A stretch of 64,000 nucleotides of DNA from Thermobifida alba. Lineage in GTDB: Bacteria > Actinomycetota > Actinomycetes > Streptosporangiales > Streptosporangiaceae. The translations under genes and the position numbers were made by a program. The stretch is from NCBI RefSeq assembly GCF_023208015.1, contig NZ_CP051627.1, positions 186,001-250,000 on the forward strand, in the 5' to 3' direction. A model generated the notes under the pieces. That model saw only the letters and a list, made by a program, of their open reading frames with translations, ran no database searches and had not been told where the DNA came from. This document shows, in pieces, positions 39,064 through 49,220 of the stretch (position 1 is its first letter; each line of letters opens with the position of its first letter).

Positions 39064-39137
39064 GGGCCGGTAGCTCAGCTGGTCAGAGCAGGGGACTCAT
39101 AATCCCTGGGTCGCGGGTTCGAGTCCCGCCCGGCCTA
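39064..39137 (+). tRNA. tRNA-Met (CAT)
   Basis: A complete elongator-type cloverleaf: GGGCCGG (39064-39070) pairs with CCGGCCT (39130-39136; G-U at the end). The D arm is GCTCAGCTGGTCAGAGC. The anticodon CAT is at 39098-39100, and the T arm is GCGGGTTCGAGTCCCGC. CCA is not fully encoded. The 3' part is the left attachment site of the adjacent island. A CAT-decoding tRNA-Ile cannot be wholly excluded. Confidence 0.93.
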
Positions 39138-39139
39138 CC
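39093..39139 (+). repeat. attL: 3' part of tRNA-Met, repeated at 43624-43670
   Basis: These 47 bp, from the anticodon stem to just past the tRNA 3' end, recur at 43624-43670 with one difference (A at 39101, C at 43632). Such a direct repeat of a tRNA 3' end is the mark left by tyrosine-recombinase integration. Confidence 0.88.
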
Positions 39140-39257
39140 CGCCGCCACCTGGTATGCAGCCGGTCCCGCTCCCAGGCGACTCCTGACAGCCGATCTGACC
39201 GCCAGCCCGCTTTTCCTCACTGGTTTCCTCACCGGCTGCCGACGATTTCCGTGACCG

Positions 39258-39727
39258 GTGTCCGCCAGTCGCCGGACACCTCGTGCCCGAACACGACAAC
39301 GGACCCAGGGCGGTGAGACCGGCTGGCGCTCCCACGCCATCGCCGCCGCGGTGGACACCCTCATCGTGCTGAGCGTCTACGCCGGGCGCGTGGCCAAGAG
39401 CGTCGTCGGCAGCATCCACCACGGGCTGCGCGCTGACTTGCCCGCGGCCTGCTGCGCCCCGACATCGCCGTCCAGGCCGCCACGCGGCAGACCATCACCG
39501 GCATCGACGGCAACGCCACGAGCGCGCCGTGGATCGGGGTATTGCCGTCGTTCGACAGCACCGTGGTCCTGCTGCCCGGCGAGGAACCGACCCGCGGCGT
39601 CGAACAGTCCGACATCGGCGAGCCGGGCGGCCACCTGGCCTACCTCAACCCCGACGGGACGATGATGTGCTGGGACGCCCCCACCGAGGACACCGGTGGC
39701 GGGCTGGACGACGTCACCGCTGAGTAA
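39258..39727 (+). pseudogene. frameshifted island protein of unknown function
   Basis: The first frame gives HAIAAAVDTLIVLSVYAGRV, then GSIHHGLRADLPAA; near 39448 it loses sense. One missing base there would join it to LLRPDIAVQAATRQTITG and, further on, VVLLPGEEPTRGVEQSDIGEPGGHLAYL...GLDDVTAE, which ends at 39727. The joined protein would have a hydrophobic N-terminal helix and a soluble domain ending in an acidic tail. Function unknown. The start (GTG 39258 or later) is uncertain. Confidence 0.55.
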
Positions 39728-39808
39728 CGTCTCCTCACACTCCTGACACGCAGAAATCCCCGTCCTATGCTGGCGTCGACGGTATGACCAGCAGGACGGG
39801 GATTACTC

Positions 39809-41033
39809 ATGAAGGACGATAGCACCATAGGCGCCCAGATCCGAGACCTGCGCCGCCGTCGCGGTCTCACCCAGGAGGACCTGGCGGCCAAGGCCGGCCT
39901 GTCACGCGACGTCATCAAGAAGATCGAGAGCGGCGGCAGCGCGCATGTCCACCTACCACGCCATCGCTCGCGCACTCGGCGTGGTCACGCTCACGTTCGC
40001 GGCCCCGCGGTCCCCAGAGCCGGTGCCCGCAGCCCACAACGACGCCGCCCTGGCCGAGATCCGCTCGGCCATCAACCCGCCCACGGGCATCGACGGACAG
40101 CCCCTGTTCAAGTTCAACGGCGATGCCGAGCCGGACCTGGGCATGCTGCGCGATGCCGTCCGCACCGTCGCGCTGGCCTACCACGGTGACCGCTACGACA
40201 CGGTGGCCGAGCTCGCGCCCGCCGTGGTGCGGTCCGCCCACCAGCACGTCGCCGCCCTCGACGGCGACCAGCAGGCCGAGGCACGGCGGCTGCGCTCCGA
40301 CGCGCTCGGCGCGATCGGCCGCTACCTCATCCAGATCCGCGAGCACGACCTGGCGCTGATGGCGCTGCGCGACAGCCTCGCCGACGCGCTCGCCATCGAG
40401 GACAAGTCCTTGGCCGCGGCTGCGATCAGCAGCCAGGCGTGGGCTCTCATGCGCCAAGGGCGGTTCCGGGAGGTCGAGGACCTGTGCGTCGCCGCGGCTG
40501 ACCGAGTGGAGCCGCAGATCTCCAAGGCCACGCCGGACCAGCTCTCGGCGTGGGGATGGCTGATGCTGCGTGCCGCAGCCGCCGCAGCACGCAACAACCG
40601 CCCGGCCGAGGCACGCGAATACCATCGGGTCGCTGTAGCCGCAGCCGCGCCGCTGGGCCGCGAGCATGAGCACACCGTCGGCTGGCGTGCCTGGGGGCCG
40701 CTCACCGTGGCGTTGAAGGGCCCCGAGCATGAACTCGTGATGGGGGCGCCCGACCAGGCGCTGGCCCTGACCGAGCAGCTGCCCGTCGGGGTGGGCCGCA
40801 CCATGCCGTCGGACTGGCACCGCCACCTGCTGGACCGCGCCCACGCCCACCTGCAGCTCGGCGACACCGACCGCGCCACCGAGATCCTCACCCGCCTGCG
40901 CGTGCAGGCGCCCGTCTGGCTGCGCTACCAGCAGACCGCACGCGAGATCACCGAGGACCTGCTGGCCGCCGCCAAGCGTATGCCCTCCGAACAGCAACGC
41001 GATCTCGCCGACTTCCTCGCTGTCACCCCATAA
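39809..41033 (+). pseudogene. XRE-family regulator with TPR-like domain, split by a frameshift
   Basis: Frame one (from 39809) encodes the helix-turn-helix: GAQIRDLRRRRGLTQEDLAAKAGLSRDVIKKIESGGSA. At 39941-39945 the natural continuation (MSTYHAIARALGVVTLTFAAP) moves to another frame, which then runs 363 codons to 41033 as a helical, TPR-like domain. Two bases lost from a GCGCGC run would explain it. Alternatively the second part is translated alone from ATG 39945, but it has no ribosome site. The intact type of protein is a common regulator in actinomycete elements. Confidence 0.7.
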
Positions 41034-41050
41034 CCGCTGACCAGCGGCGT

Positions 41051-41100
41051 GGGTACGTTCCGTACCCGAACGGAGAGCCCTCGTCCAGAACGGGGGCTCT
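41051..41100 (+). terminator. double hairpin after the XRE gene
   Basis: GGGTACG/CGTACCC (41051-41067, 3-nt loop) is followed by AGAGCCCTCGT/ACGGGGGCTCT (41074-41100, 11 bp with one G-U). They stand 17 bp after the regulator's stop. Confidence 0.65.
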
Positions 41101-41179
41101 TCGTCACTGGGAGTGTTCGACGACGTTTCGTAACGTCCATCTCACCGAGTCACCGAATCGACCCGCCGTGAGGTGAGAC

Positions 41180-41464
41180 ATGACGGAGCCGAGCGAGCGC
41201 GAACTCCAGCGCCTGGACCTGCTGGGACCATGGCCGACCGGAGCAGAGGATCTCGAAGCCAGCCACCCCGACTGGATGATCTGGAGATCCCGGGGGCAGG
41301 ACGGCACGCACGGCCCATGGATGGCGCAGCGCTCCGAGTTCCTGACCCCCCGGCAGCAGACGCGAGGCCTGCGCTCGACCCTGACCGCGGACACGGTCGA
41401 CGAGCTCGGTCGGCTGCTCGACGCCCAGGAGCGGCTGCGGGAGCAGGAGGCGTCGGATGGCTGA
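41180..41464 (+). CDS. small island protein A (94 aa)
   Basis: A soluble, acidic protein: LLGPWPTGAEDLEASHPDWMIWRSRGQDG ... STLTADTVDELGRLLDAQERLREQE. It is a paralogue of the next gene: both share (S/T/R)xxPDWxIxR and a C-terminal TAD-V-x2-L-x2-L helix. Its stop overlaps the ATG of that gene. Function unknown; such proteins appear beside XRE regulators in actinomycete islands. Confidence 0.7.
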   Translation: MTEPSERELQRLDLLGPWPTGAEDLEASHPDWMIWRSRGQDGTHGPWMAQRSEFLTPRQQTRGLRSTLTADTVDELGRLLDAQERLREQEASDG

Positions 41465-41699
41465 CGACCTGCAGACGCTTCGGTCGCGTTACCCGGACTG
41501 GCTGATCACCCGGGAGGCCACCGGGCGGCTGGTGGCCGTGCACCGCACGGAGCAGCCCGACCCTCAGCGGGAGAAGGCGTTGCTCCTCACCCGAGTCACC
41601 GCGGACATGGTCGAGCAGCTCGACCCGAAGCTGCTCGTGCAGCGGTGCCTACGCGAACAGCTGCCCGGCGGGTACCCGGTGCCCCGCGGCGTCCGCTGA
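41457..41699 (+). CDS. small island protein B (80 aa), paralogue of A
   Basis: Begins MADDLQTLRSRYPDWLITREATGRLVAVHR and ends ADMVEQLDPKLLVQRCLREQ. It has the same PDW-x-I-x-R start and C-terminal helix as protein A, so the two arose by duplication. They are translationally coupled (8-bp overlap). No known motif; one cysteine. Confidence 0.7.
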   Translation: MADDLQTLRSRYPDWLITREATGRLVAVHRTEQPDPQREKALLLTRVTADMVEQLDPKLLVQRCLREQLPGGYPVPRGVR

Positions 41700-41709
41700 A
41701 GGAGGCCTT

Positions 41710-42045
41710 GTGGTCGCTTACGAGGTGCACGACGACACGGTGGTGGGCCCCGACGGCGAACGCCTGTCGTCCGGGGCCGTCGCGAAGCTCGCCGACCAGC
41801 TGCACCACATCGCCGGCCAGCTGGCCTACATGGAGATGCGGCGGCGTTACCCGCTCGGCTCCCTGATCCGCTACCAGCCGTTCAACCGGCGCTACACCGT
41901 CATCGGGTACGGCGTTCCGGGGTCGCTCACTCCCGAGGTACGGGCGCGACCCACGGGAGAGGACCTGGTCAGCGACCCGGTGCTGCTGCCCGTCGACCGC
42001 ATCGAACCGGTCCCGTCGCCTCTCGGGGGTGAGGCGACGCCCTAA
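41710..42045 (+). CDS. small island protein C (111 aa)
   Basis: Starts at GTG 41710, 10 bp after protein B and behind GAAGGAGG. The protein is beta-rich in its second half: LGSLIRYQPFNRRYTVIGYGVPGSLTPEVRARPTGEDL. The first half forms an amphipathic helix (SGAVAKLADQLHHIAGQLAYMEMRRRY). It has no recognised domain. Its place in the A-B-C string suggests co-expression with them. Confidence 0.6.
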   Translation: MVAYEVHDDTVVGPDGERLSSGAVAKLADQLHHIAGQLAYMEMRRRYPLGSLIRYQPFNRRYTVIGYGVPGSLTPEVRARPTGEDLVSDPVLLPVDRIEPVPSPLGGEATP

Positions 42046-42189
42046 GGGCGCCCCCGCCTTCCGCTGGGACGCCCCTCCCCAACCGGCCGCCCGGCCCTCC
42101 TGCCCCTGGCCCGAGGCCGGGCGGTCAACCACAGAAGATCACTCCCGTCGACACACCGGCGGCAGGAGCTCGTATCCATAGGGAAGAAC

Positions 42190-42354
42190 ATGGCCTGGGG
42201 AAAGAAAGACACCGACGACAACAACAGCAAGAAGGACTGTGGCGCCTGCGACGGTGACGGCGGGAGCTGGGTCTACTCGGACGGACAGACGCAGGGCAAG
42301 AGCCACCAGAGGTGGGTGGCATGTCAGGCGTGCGGCGGCAGCGGGAAGGTCTGA
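42190..42354 (+). CDS. 54-residue CxxCxGxG peptide, candidate substrate of the adjacent methyltransferase
   Basis: Starts MAWGKKDTDDNNSKKD, then CGACDGDG, a middle part SDGQTQGKSHQRW, and CQACGGSGKV at the end. The two CxxC pairs look like half a DnaJ-type zinc finger. The Asp/Asn-rich start and the three Asp-Gly pairs are typical aspartimide-prone sites. ATG 42190 follows GGGAAG. It ends 2 bp before the methyltransferase start, so the two are surely co-translated. It is either a small zinc protein or a RiPP precursor; I favour the latter as a hypothesis. Confidence 0.7.
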   Translation: MAWGKKDTDDNNSKKDCGACDGDGGSWVYSDGQTQGKSHQRWVACQACGGSGKV

Positions 42355-42356
42355 GC

Positions 42357-43436
42357 ATGACATTCGAAGCAGCACTGCGCGCGGCGGGGGTGTCCGACCG
42401 GGTCGCCGAGGCGTTCGCGCGGGTGCCGCGCCACCCGTTCATCCCCGACCGGATCTGGCACCGCGGCCGACCCGTGGACCGGGCCGCCGACCCGGACCGG
42501 TGGCGGCGCCTGGTCGACACCGACGACGCGGTCGTGACGCAGGTCGACGACGGCGCCGAGAACGGACCGGGCCTCCCCACGTCGTCCTCCAGCGCGCCGA
42601 GCATCATGGCCGCCATGCTGGACGCGCTGGACGTCCACCCCGGCCAATGGGTCCTGGAGATCGGCACCGGCACCGGATGGAACGCCGCGCTCCTCTGCGA
42701 ACTGGTGGGGGATGCGGACCGGGTCACGACCGTCGAGGTCGACCCGGTGCTCGCCGAGCGGGCGCGGGGCGCACTGGAGGCCGCCGGATACCGGACACGG
42801 GTCGTGACCGGCGACGGTGCGGCCGGGTTCCCCGCACTCGCACCCTACGACCGGATCATCGCCACCTGCACGGTGCGGGACGTCCCGAAGGACTGGCTCG
42901 TACAGATCCGCGACGGCGGCCTGGTCGTCACCCCGTGGTCGCCCCAGCCGTCCGGCCCGGGCGGTGTGCTCGCCCGGCTCCGGGTGCGCGGCGACACCGC
43001 CGAAGGCCGGTTCATCCAAGGCCTGTCGTTCATGTGGCTGCGCGCCCAGCGCAACAGGGGCGGTACACCGCACGACCTGAACGCCACCGCCGACCAGATC
43101 CGCCCGATCGAGGCCGGGCAGGACCTCCTGCTCGACGGGACGGTCGTGCTGCCGCTGATGCTGATGCTCCCCGCTTGGCGGTTCGGCATGCGACGCAGCC
43201 CCGAGGGCATGGTGATCTGGCTCTCCGCCACCGACTCGCCGTCGTGGGCGCGGGTGTACGAGGACCGGGTCGAGCAGGGCGGGCCGCGCCGACTGTGGGA
43301 CGAACTGGAGCAGGCGCACGCCTGGTGGGACCAGCGAGGCCGCCCGGGGGTCGAGGAGTTCGGGCTGACCGTCGGAGCGCGGGGCCACACGGTCTGGCTG
43401 GGCTCCCCCGACGGCCCGTCCTGGCGGCACGGGTAA
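42357..43436 (+). CDS. PIMT-like (protein L-isoaspartyl) O-methyltransferase
   Basis: A 359-residue SAM-dependent enzyme. The PIMT N-terminus is DRVAEAFARVPRHPFIPDRIW. The substrate-site SSSSAPSIMAAMLDAL replaces the usual TISxP loop. The SAM motif VLEIGTGTGWNAALL is near residue 99, then VTTVEVDPVLAERAR and YDRIIATCTVRDVPKDWLVQIRDGGLVVTPW. The extra C-terminal ~130 residues mark the group found in actinobacterial RiPP and element loci, not housekeeping repair PIMT. It methylates Asp/isoAsp side chains in known relatives. It follows the CxxCxGxG peptide by 2 bp and is closed by a strong terminator. Confidence 0.88.
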   Translation: MTFEAALRAAGVSDRVAEAFARVPRHPFIPDRIWHRGRPVDRAADPDRWRRLVDTDDAVVTQVDDGAENGPGLPTSSSSAPSIMAAMLDALDVHPGQWVLEIGTGTGWNAALLCELVGDADRVTTVEVDPVLAERARGALEAAGYRTRVVTGDGAAGFPALAPYDRIIATCTVRDVPKDWLVQIRDGGLVVTPWSPQPSGPGGVLARLRVRGDTAEGRFIQGLSFMWLRAQRNRGGTPHDLNATADQIRPIEAGQDLLLDGTVVLPLMLMLPAWRFGMRRSPEGMVIWLSATDSPSWARVYEDRVEQGGPRRLWDELEQAHAWWDQRGRPGVEEFGLTVGARGHTVWLGSPDGPSWRHG

Positions 43437-43447
43437 CCGTAGAAACG

Positions 43448-43490
43448 AGCGCGGCCCCCGTCCACCGTGCTGGTGGGCGGGGGCCGCGCT
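43448..43490 (+). terminator. terminator after the methyltransferase
   Basis: A 19-bp stem (43448-43466 with 43472-43490, one G-U pair, 5-nt loop GTGCT) starts 11 bp after the stop. Confidence 0.85.
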
Positions 43491-43623
43491 TCATTCAGCT
43501 GCCCGGTACCGGCCCGTACCGGCGGCGCGATCAGCGTCGGGACCGGCGCGGCTGCGGCGGGTGCCACCGCGGGGCGGTACCCCGCCACGGCCGCCCGGCC
43601 GGCACCGTGAACGCATGAGCCCA

Positions 43624-43670
43624 GGACTCATCATCCCTGGGTCGCGGGTTCGAGTCCCGCCCGGCCTACC
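43624..43670 (+). repeat. attR: copy of the tRNA-Met 3' part
   Basis: 46 of 47 bases equal 39093-39139, in direct orientation. No 5' half of a tRNA precedes it, so it is not a gene. The stretch 43491-43623 before it and 43671-43818 after it contain no gene I can support. Confidence 0.88.
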
Positions 43671-46863: not shown

Positions 46864-47766
46864 CTAGAACGGGCAGGTGGAGCGGTACTCCTCGACGTCG
46901 CTGAGCAGGCCGGTGCGCGGTCCGGGGCAGAGGAACTGGGTGTAGCGGGTGTCCTCGTCCACGAAGCGCTTGAGCCAGGCCACGCTGTACATGCCGATGG
47001 TCTTGTTGGTGATGTTGGGCGCGAAGTGGCTCGCTCCGTCGAGCTCCAGGTAGGCCTTGTCGGTGGAGCTGGGGATGCTGTTGTAGAACGGCTTGGAGTG
47101 CAGGGTGACCGAGGCGATGGTGTCGTACTCGGCGCCGATGATCAGGGTCGGCACGGTGATGTCGCGCCAGGACTTGTTGAGGTGCCAGGGGGTCAGCGGG
47201 ATGGCGGCCTTCAGGTCGGGGCGCTGGGAGGCCAGGCGCAGGGTGCCGCCGCCGCCCATGGAGTGGCCCATGACCGCCAGGCGGCTGGCGTCGATGCGGT
47301 TGCGCACCGCCGAGGAGGCGTCGGTGAGCATGTAGTCCAGCGCGGCGTTGAGCTGGCGGGCGCGGCTGTCGGGCTGGTCCAGCGTGGTGTTGGTGTCGAT
47401 GGCGATCACGACGAAGCCGTGGGAGGCGATGCGCTCGCCCAGCCAGGCGATGGAGGACTGGGTGCCGGTGTAGCCGGGGGAGATGGCGATCGCGCCGTAG
47501 GTGTTGTTCTCCCGCGGGTAGTAGATGGTGCCGCCGCCGAAGCCGTCCGCGCCGAAGCGGGAGGCGCGCTCCTCGCTGACGGAGAAGGGGCCGCTGCGCG
47601 CCTCCAGCATGGACTCGGTCGGGTAGGGGCCGCGTTCGTAGGGGTTGGCGGCCTGGGCCGGAGCGGCCAGCGCCACGGTGGCGACGACCGCCGTGGCGGC
47701 CGCGGCGGTGGCCCGCAGGGCGCGGGAGAGCAGCGAGGTCTCCCGGCGGGGGGTGGTGACCGACAT
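46864..47766 (-). CDS. secreted cutinase / polyester hydrolase, copy 1
   Basis: A 300-residue preprotein. A Sec signal peptide ends at AAPAQA before ANPYERGP (mature start near residue 40). The alpha/beta hydrolase core has [15 protein letters not shown] (oxyanion), the nucleophile elbow GHSMGGGG (mature Ser130), Asp176 in GAEYDTIAS and His208 in GASHFAPN. A disulfide joins Cys in LCPGPR and STCPF at the end. It matches Thermobifida Cut1/Est119-type cutinases as I recall them; these degrade cutin and PET-like polyesters. Copy 2 is about 550 bp upstream. ATG 47766 has GAGGAAC before it. Confidence 0.95.
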
Positions 47767-48329: not shown

Positions 48330-49220
48330 CTAGAACGGGCAGGTGGAGCGGTACTCGTCGACGTCGCTGAGCAGGCCGGTGCGCGGTCCGGGGCAGAGGA
48401 ACTGGGTGTAGCGGGTGTCCTCGTCCACGAAGCGCTTGAGCCAGGCCACGCTGTACATGCCGATGGTCTTGTTGGTGATGTTGGGCGCGAAGTGGGTGGC
48501 GTTGTTCAGCTCCAGGTAGGCCTTGTCGGTGGAGCTGGGGATGCTGTTGTAGAACGGCTCGGAGTGCGAGCTGACCGGAGCGATGGTGTCCAGGTCCGCG
48601 CCGATGATCAGCGTCGGGACGGTGATGTCGCGCCAGGACTTGTTGAGGTGCCAGGGGGTCAGCGGGATGGCGGCCTTCAGGTCGGGGCGCTGGGAGGCCA
48701 GGCGCAGGGTGCCGCCGCCGCCCATGGAGTGGCCCATGACCGCCAGGCGGCTGGCGTCGATGCGGTTGCGCACCGAGGAAGAAGCGTCGGTGAGCATGTA
48801 GTCCAGTGCCGAGTTCAGCTGGCGGGCGCGGCTGTCCGGCTGGTCCAGCGTGGTGTTGGTGTCGATGGCGATGACCACGAAGCCGTGGGAGGCGATGCGC
48901 TCGCCCAGCCAGGCGATGGAGGACTGGGTGCCGGTGTAGCCGGGGGAGATGGCGATCGCGCCGTAGGTGTTGTTCTCCCGCGGGTAGTAGATGGTGCCGC
49001 CGCCGAAGCCGTCCGCACCCAGGCGGGAGGCGCGCTCCTCGCTGACGGAGAAGGGGCCGCTGCGCGCCTCCAGCATGGACTGGGTCGGGTTGGGGCCGCG
49101 CTCGTAGGGGTTGGCGGCCTGGGCCGGAGCGGCCAGCGCCACGGTGGCGGCCGCCGCGGCCGCCACGGCGACGGCGCGGGAGAGCAGCGACGCGCCCCGG
49201 CGGGGGGTGGTGATCGACAT
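48330..49220 (-). CDS. secreted cutinase / polyester hydrolase, copy 2
   Basis: A 296-residue preprotein, the tandem paralogue of copy 1. The signal peptide is shorter ([21 protein letters not shown]... ends AAPAQA). The mature enzyme differs mainly near the substrate cleft: [17 protein letters not shown] in place of [17 protein letters not shown], and [11 protein letters not shown] in place of [11 protein letters not shown]. The triad and the disulfide are intact. Such paired cutinases are known in Thermobifida. ATG 49220 is preceded by GAGGAAC. Confidence 0.95.

What the first reader, a model, noticed from the sequence alone, without database searches (positions are those of the whole stretch)
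42190..43436. Candidate aspartimide-forming RiPP locus: Asp/CxxCxGxG peptide plus PIMT-like methyltransferase
A 54-residue peptide ends 2 bp before a PIMT-type methyltransferase with a long extra C-terminal part. The peptide has an Asp/Asn-rich start (DTDDNN), three Asp-Gly pairs and two CxxCxGxG units. PIMT homologues modify Asp in lanthipeptides and graspetides, and in imiditides, where the enzyme acts on an otherwise unmodified precursor. No lanthipeptide synthetase or ATP-grasp enzyme is nearby, so an imiditide-like two-gene system is the closest fit. Whether the peptide is precursor or a zinc-binding partner is inference.
Basis: partly seen in the sequence, partly recalled or inferred. 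Interest (0 to 1): 0.78.

Follow-up and report, generated by a model that had tools for sequence, protein, structure and literature searches.

The report
Known-type zinc-peptide RiPP gene pair
A small zinc-finger-like peptide gene sits directly in front of the enzyme gene predicted to rearrange one of its aspartates; this is a new member of an already described natural-product class (type II pamtides or cysimiditides), carried here on a small island inserted at a tRNA gene.

Summary
A 54-aa peptide (42190-42354) ends 2 bp before a 359-aa PIMT-like methyltransferase with a long C-terminal domain (42357-43436). The class suggested is right, but the subclass is off by one. The pair fits "type II pamtides" (Lee 2023), also called "cysimiditides" (Zhu 2025): CxxCxGxG-Asp-CxxCxGxG peptides whose zinc-held hairpin presents one Asp to the enzyme. 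"Precursor or zinc-binding partner" is therefore not an either/or. The likely target is Asp31 (VYSDGQ), not the Asp/Asn-rich start.

Relatives support this. Of 75 family peptides next to such a methyltransferase, 74 have Asp at this position. Of 17 relatives without the enzyme, 12 have Asn at the same column (p about 1e-11, not corrected for relatedness). That switch is the least expected result. It supports Asp31 as target and raises an untested idea of enzyme-free succinimide peptides.

The cassette lies on a 4.5-kb island at a tRNA-Met gene. Its regulator carries a 2-bp frameshift. In a sister species the only change in the peptide gene removes the fourth cysteine.

Verdict: new member of a known kind. 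Chemistry is inferred from characterised homologues; none was tested here.

The parts
42190..42354 (+). Type II pamtide / cysimiditide precursor peptide, 54 aa (MAWGKKDTDDNNSKKDCGACDGDGGSWVYSDGQTQGKSHQRWVACQACGGSGKV)
   Evidence: ORF; profile match 66.5 bits, best of all genomes searched; beside the methyltransferase in the relatives
42238..42261 (+). First zinc motif CGACDGDG (residues 17-24)
   Evidence: Sequence; C17, C20, G22 invariant in 12 aligned peptides, G24 nearly so
42280..42282 (+). Asp31, predicted methylation/aspartimide site in the hairpin turn (SDGQ)
   Evidence: Invariant in 12 aligned peptides; Asp in 74 of 75 methyltransferase-linked peptides; corresponds to the modified Asp of FcaA (ITVTSDGK; PMC10787088)
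42322..42345 (+). Second zinc motif CQACGGSG (residues 45-52); Cys48 is Gly in the sister genome G001
42357..43436 (+). PAMT: PIMT-type peptide aspartyl O-methyltransferase with C-terminal domain, 359 aa
   Evidence: PF01135 E 6e-32; model pLDDT 89.1; best solved-structure match 1DL5, Thermotoga PIMT, over the full length
43326..43346 (+). WxxxGxP motif (WDQRGRP, residues 324-330) of RiPP-associated PIMT homologues
   Evidence: Sequence; W324 nearly invariant and P330 invariant in 34 homologues; motif described in PMC13001092
39064..39139 (+). tRNA-Met (CAT), left boundary of the island
   Evidence: ARAGORN
43624..43670 (+). Copy of the 3' 47 nt of that tRNA (98%), right boundary of a ~4.5-kb island 39140-43670
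   Evidence: tRNA-to-flank distance is only about 190 bp in G003
39809..41033 (+). HTH-TPR regulator, split by a 2-bp deletion at 39938 (HTH part from 39809, TPR part from 39945); intact as one ~408-aa ORF in G001
41180..41464 (+). Small protein, 94 aa, weakly similar to the next one; among the loci compared, conserved in the G001 cassette only
41457..41699 (+). Small protein, 80 aa; among the loci compared, conserved in the G001 cassette only
41710..42045 (+). Small protein, 111 aa, unknown; among the loci compared, conserved in the G001 cassette only

Best explanation
This is a two-gene type II pamtide (cysimiditide) locus. The peptide binds one zinc through its four cysteines and folds into a hairpin that puts Asp31-Gly32 at the turn. 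The methyltransferase, using its extra C-terminal domain for recognition, methylates the side chain of Asp31. The ester is attacked by the backbone nitrogen of Gly32, losing methanol, to give an aspartimide, which hydrolyses mostly to isoaspartate. Shown here: the gene pair, the conserved motifs, linkage across genera, and the Asp-to-Asn switch in relatives without the enzyme. Inferred from characterised homologues (FcaA/FcaM, TceA, NalA): zinc binding, methylation, aspartimide and isoAsp. Unknown: the biological role, and whether the locus is expressed in this strain, since the linked regulator is frameshifted.
For: Exact match to the published type II definition CxxCxGxG-D-CxxCxGxG plus adjacent PAMT (PMC10787088; PMC13001092). 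C17, C20, G22, D31, C45, G50, G52 invariant in 12 aligned peptides and G24, G32, C48 nearly so. The closest enzymes (G001 98%, G013 61%, G003 70%, G033 54% identity) all have such a peptide just upstream. 25 of 30 best peptide loci across the family are PAMT-linked. Asp at the turn in 74/75 PAMT-linked peptides versus 4/17 without a PAMT. C-terminal domain and WxxxGxP motif present; 1DL5, the only solved structure that Lee et al. (2023) knew of in the RiPP-associated clade, is the top full-length structural match (PMC10787088). No other RiPP enzyme nearby.
Against: No chemistry was measured. The peptide model is only moderate (pLDDT 71.9, six sequences) and its best structural matches, DnaJ/UvrA zinc regions, are not significant. 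The regulator upstream is frameshifted, so the locus may be silent. In the sister genome the fourth Cys is lost, suggesting weak or relaxed selection on the peptide in the genus.
Confidence: 0.9

Rival explanations
1. The peptide is not a substrate but a structural or regulatory zinc-ribbon partner (DnaJ- or anti-TRAP-like) of the methyltransferase, which modifies something else.
For: Weak DnaJ_CXXCXGXG match (E 1e-4); PAMT-less zinc-ribbon relatives exist.
Against: The Asp is kept almost always where the enzyme is present and is otherwise mostly Asn, as expected of a substrate residue. Homologous peptides are modified at this Asp in published work. The peptide is below the DnaJ cut-off (22.8 against 32.7 bits).
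Confidence: 0.06
2. The locus is a decaying remnant: an acquired island whose regulator is already broken, with no product made in this strain.
For: 2-bp deletion at 39938 splits the regulator; the sister species has lost Cys48; a partly deleted second methyltransferase copy lies elsewhere in this genome (G000:C1:3604653-3605073).
Against: Peptide and enzyme are both intact, and the enzyme differs from G001 at 11 synonymous and 7 non-synonymous codons, which is not runaway decay. The deletion could be a sequencing error. Compatible with the best explanation as to what the genes encode.
Confidence: 0.25
3. The enzyme is a general isoaspartate-repair methyltransferase (Pcm) and the peptide is a chance neighbour.
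For: PCMT domain match.
Against: Long C-terminal domain, TIGR04188-like sequence, many paralogues in the genome, recurrent linkage to the peptide.
Confidence: 0.01

Closest known systems
Type II pamtides (FcaA/FcaM, Frankia casuarinae; Lee et al. 2023, PMC10787088)
   Same: CxxCxGxG-Asp-CxxCxGxG peptide, two-gene locus, PAMT with C-terminal domain, Asp-Gly at the hairpin turn
   Different: Longer linker between the zinc motifs (20 aa here) and a longer N-terminal extension (16 residues before the first Cys) than most relatives aligned here
Cysimiditides (TceA from T. cellulosilytica, NalA from Nocardiopsis alba; Zhu et al. 2025, known here only through the review PMC13001092)
   Same: Same class under another name; the window is probably from Thermobifida (its cutinase matches PDB 3vis over its full length), so TceA is probably a close orthologue
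   Different: The primary paper is not held, so sequence identity to TceA could not be checked
Type I pamtides / imiditides (SpaA, NmaA)
   Same: PAMT as only modifying enzyme; many share the MGKH-like N-terminus with type II peptides
   Different: No cysteines, linear, Pro/Gly/Asp/Lys-rich
Graspetide PIMTs (TIGR04188)
   Same: Closest NCBIfam model to the enzyme
   Different: Below the family cut-off; no ATP-grasp partner

Membership tests
Type II pamtide / cysimiditide | Short peptide with two CxxCxGxG motifs | tested here: met
   CGACDGDG and CQACGGSG
Type II pamtide / cysimiditide | Conserved Asp between the motifs | tested here: met
   Asp31 invariant in 12 aligned peptides; Asp in 74 of 75 PAMT-linked peptides
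Type II pamtide / cysimiditide | Adjacent PAMT gene | tested here: met
   2 bp downstream; recurrent in relatives
Type II pamtide / cysimiditide | PAMT with C-terminal domain of over 100 aa as in Thermotoga PIMT 1DL5 | tested here: met
   Model with well over 100 residues beyond the core; 1DL5 is the top hit over 354 columns
Type II pamtide / cysimiditide | No primary enzyme of another RiPP class nearby | tested here: met
   Neighbours: helicase, HTH, tRNA, small proteins, MarR, COX1, cutinases
Type II pamtide / cysimiditide | Zinc binding by four Cys, required for modification | not testable with these tools
   Four Cys present; no biochemistry possible
Type II pamtide / cysimiditide | Asp to methyl ester to aspartimide to isoAsp (+14, -18, 0 Da) | not testable with these tools
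   Needs mass spectrometry
Type I pamtide / imiditide | Cysteine-free, Pro/Gly/Asp-rich linear precursor | tested here: not met
   Four Cys and no Pro in the peptide
Graspetide PIMT (TIGR04188) | Score above the curated cut-off 380 and an ATP-grasp partner | tested here: not met
   318.9 bits; no ATP-grasp gene near
FxLD-system methyltransferase (TIGR04364) | Score above the curated cut-off 320 | tested here: not met
   157.7 bits
DnaJ central domain (PF00684) | Score above the gathering cut-off 32.7 | tested here: not met
   22.8 bits

The most novel reading that the evidence does not exclude
The turn residue of this zinc-hairpin peptide family switches with the enzyme: Asp when a PAMT is next door, mostly Asn-Gly when it is not (12 of 17, in about five lineages by eye). 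Asn-Gly cyclises to a succinimide without an enzyme, so the PAMT-less relatives may be enzyme-independent succinimide/isoAsp peptides, and the zinc hairpin itself may be the conserved function. The milder reading, that Asn-Gly is just a good hairpin turn, is not excluded.
Probability: 0.12. Interest if true: 0.6.

Novelty: new member of a known kind. Interest (0 to 1): 0.33.

Why it matters
As a locus it adds a natural case to a small, recently defined RiPP class whose biological role is unknown. Two natural changes are useful for the field: a sister species whose peptide differs only by Cys48Gly, and a cassette found as a unit at two different chromosomal places, one of them a tRNA site. The Asp/Asn switch is independent comparative evidence that this Asp is the substrate of the enzyme. 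It also points to a PAMT-less sister family that would allow a direct test of whether the succinimide, or only the hairpin, matters.

Tried and rejected
A loose DNA pattern for a single CxxCxGxG in 343 genomes hit every genome, below its own backward control, and was useless. The primary cysimiditide paper (PMC13015260) is not held, so identity to TceA and the meaning of the asterisk in "TceA*" remain open. The peptide model gave no significant structural match. Considered and rejected: type I imiditide (has cysteines), graspetide tailoring enzyme (no ATP-grasp gene, below cut-off), housekeeping Pcm, chance neighbourhood. Looking for a substitute enzyme beside the PAMT-less Asn-Gly peptides found none that recurs, only a second CxxCxGxG protein (109 aa in L203) beside most of them. 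PAMT homologues occur on actinomycete plasmids, but no mobile element was shown for this island.

Full report
What is there. A 54-residue peptide gene (42190-42354) is followed after 2 bp by a 359-residue methyltransferase gene (42357-43436), with a GGGAAGG ribosome-binding-like stretch inside the peptide's end. The enzyme is a PIMT by Pfam (PF01135, 6e-32). It is nearest, but below cut-off, to the graspetide methyltransferase model TIGR04188 (318.9 against 380 bits). Its model (pLDDT 89.1) has a PIMT core plus a C-terminal domain, and its best solved match over the full length is Thermotoga maritima PIMT 1DL5. Lee et al. (2023) name that structure as the only one they knew in the clade that holds most RiPP-associated PIMTs (PMC10787088). 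The WxxxGxP motif of several RiPP-associated PIMT classes (PMC13001092) is present as WDQRGRP; W324 is nearly invariant and P330 invariant in 34 homologues.

What it is. Lee et al. 2023 defined type II pamtides as peptides with CxxCxGxG-D-CxxCxGxG next to a PAMT. They showed that FcaM turns Asp24 of FcaA into isoAsp by way of ester and aspartimide, only when zinc is bound by the cysteines. A 2026 review calls the same class cysimiditides, lists examples from Frankia, Thermobifida cellulosilytica and Nocardiopsis alba, and counts 125. The window peptide meets every sequence criterion. Asp31 of VYSDGQ corresponds to the modified Asp of ITVTSDGK. The Asp/Asn-rich start and the other two Asp-Gly pairs are not conserved.

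Recurrence. In 159 loci, 10 of 11 distinct dual-CxxCxGxG ORFs lay within 70 bp of a PAMT, same strand. The PAMTs closest to this one (G001, G013, G003, G033) all have the peptide; more distant PAMTs often have cysteine-free MGKH peptides of type I instead. A profile of 12 peptides found 50 positive genomes among 161 of the family and 27 among 395 of the class. Of the 30 best loci of the family search, 25 have the pair adjacent, in either order.

The Asp/Asn switch. I scored 92 family peptides by the residue at the turn (14 residues after the first Cys, one either side allowed) and by PAMT adjacency. With a PAMT: 74 Asp, 1 other (L180, SENG). Without: 12 Asn, 4 Asp, 1 other (Fisher p 1.4e-11). 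Caveats: many are related, I counted about five Asn lineages only by eye, and the profile was built from PAMT-linked Asp peptides, which works against finding Asn. The simplest reading is that Asp is kept for the enzyme, while Asn-Gly, a good type I' turn, serves the hairpin otherwise. A bolder one is spontaneous succinimide formation at Asn-Gly. The turn and deamidation chemistry are from general knowledge, not from a test here.

Surroundings. ARAGORN finds a tRNA-Met at 39064-39139, and the last 47 nt of it recur at 43624-43670 with 98% identity. The stretch between is about 4.5 kb and holds the regulator, three small proteins, the peptide and the enzyme. In G003 only about 190 bp separate the tRNA from the flanking gene; in G001 about 2.2 kb and in G002 about 11.7 kb of other DNA are present. 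So this looks like an insertion hot spot and the cassette like an island. In G001 the same cassette (97.5% over 4 kb) lies elsewhere, with no tRNA found near it. I saw no integrase in the island. Relative to G001 the regulator here has a 2-bp deletion at 39938 that splits HTH from TPR. In G001 the only nucleotide difference in the peptide gene is TGC to GGC at codon 48, which removes the fourth zinc ligand. As published work found no modification when zinc or the cysteines are unavailable, the G001 product may be inactive; this is inference.

Organism. A window protein (46867-47766, minus strand) matches PDB 3vis over its full length (E 1e-198). If it were, the asterisk in the review's "TceA*" might mark a changed peptide; I could not read the primary paper.

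Verdict. It is a new member of a known kind. Shown: genes, motifs, linkage, comparative signal. Inferred: chemistry and fold. Unknown: role and expression.

Noticed in passing
L203, L204, L211, L219, L226, L228, L235, L237, L240, L241, L242: Zinc-hairpin relatives without a PAMT carry Asn-Gly in place of Asp-Gly and mostly sit beside a second CxxCxGxG protein (109 aa in L203) of unknown function.
   Followed up: partly
window 39064-43670: tRNA-Met with a 47-nt copy of its 3' end 4.5 kb away; the site holds different inserts in G001 and G002 and is nearly empty in G003.
   Followed up: yes
window 39938: 2-bp deletion splits the HTH-TPR regulator that is intact in G001; real or sequencing error.
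   Followed up: partly
L009 / L038 (G001): Cys48 of the peptide is Gly, the only nucleotide difference in the peptide gene between the two species.
   Followed up: yes
L042, G000:C1:3604653-3605073: Partly deleted second methyltransferase copy in the same genome (97% DNA identity to the window gene's 3' end), with a short CxxCxGxG peptide gene of another kind about 670 bp upstream.
   Followed up: partly
L125 (Actinomadura sp. NBRC 104425): Three separate type II pamtide pairs within 13 kb.
   Followed up: no
window 46864-47766 and 48330-49220, minus strand: Two tandem PET-hydrolase-like cutinase genes; the first matches PDB 3vis over its full length.
   Followed up: partly
L081, L125, L150, L025, L026 against L023, L028, L080 and others: Type I and many type II precursors share an MGKH-like N-terminus, hinting at a common origin or recognition element.
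   Followed up: no
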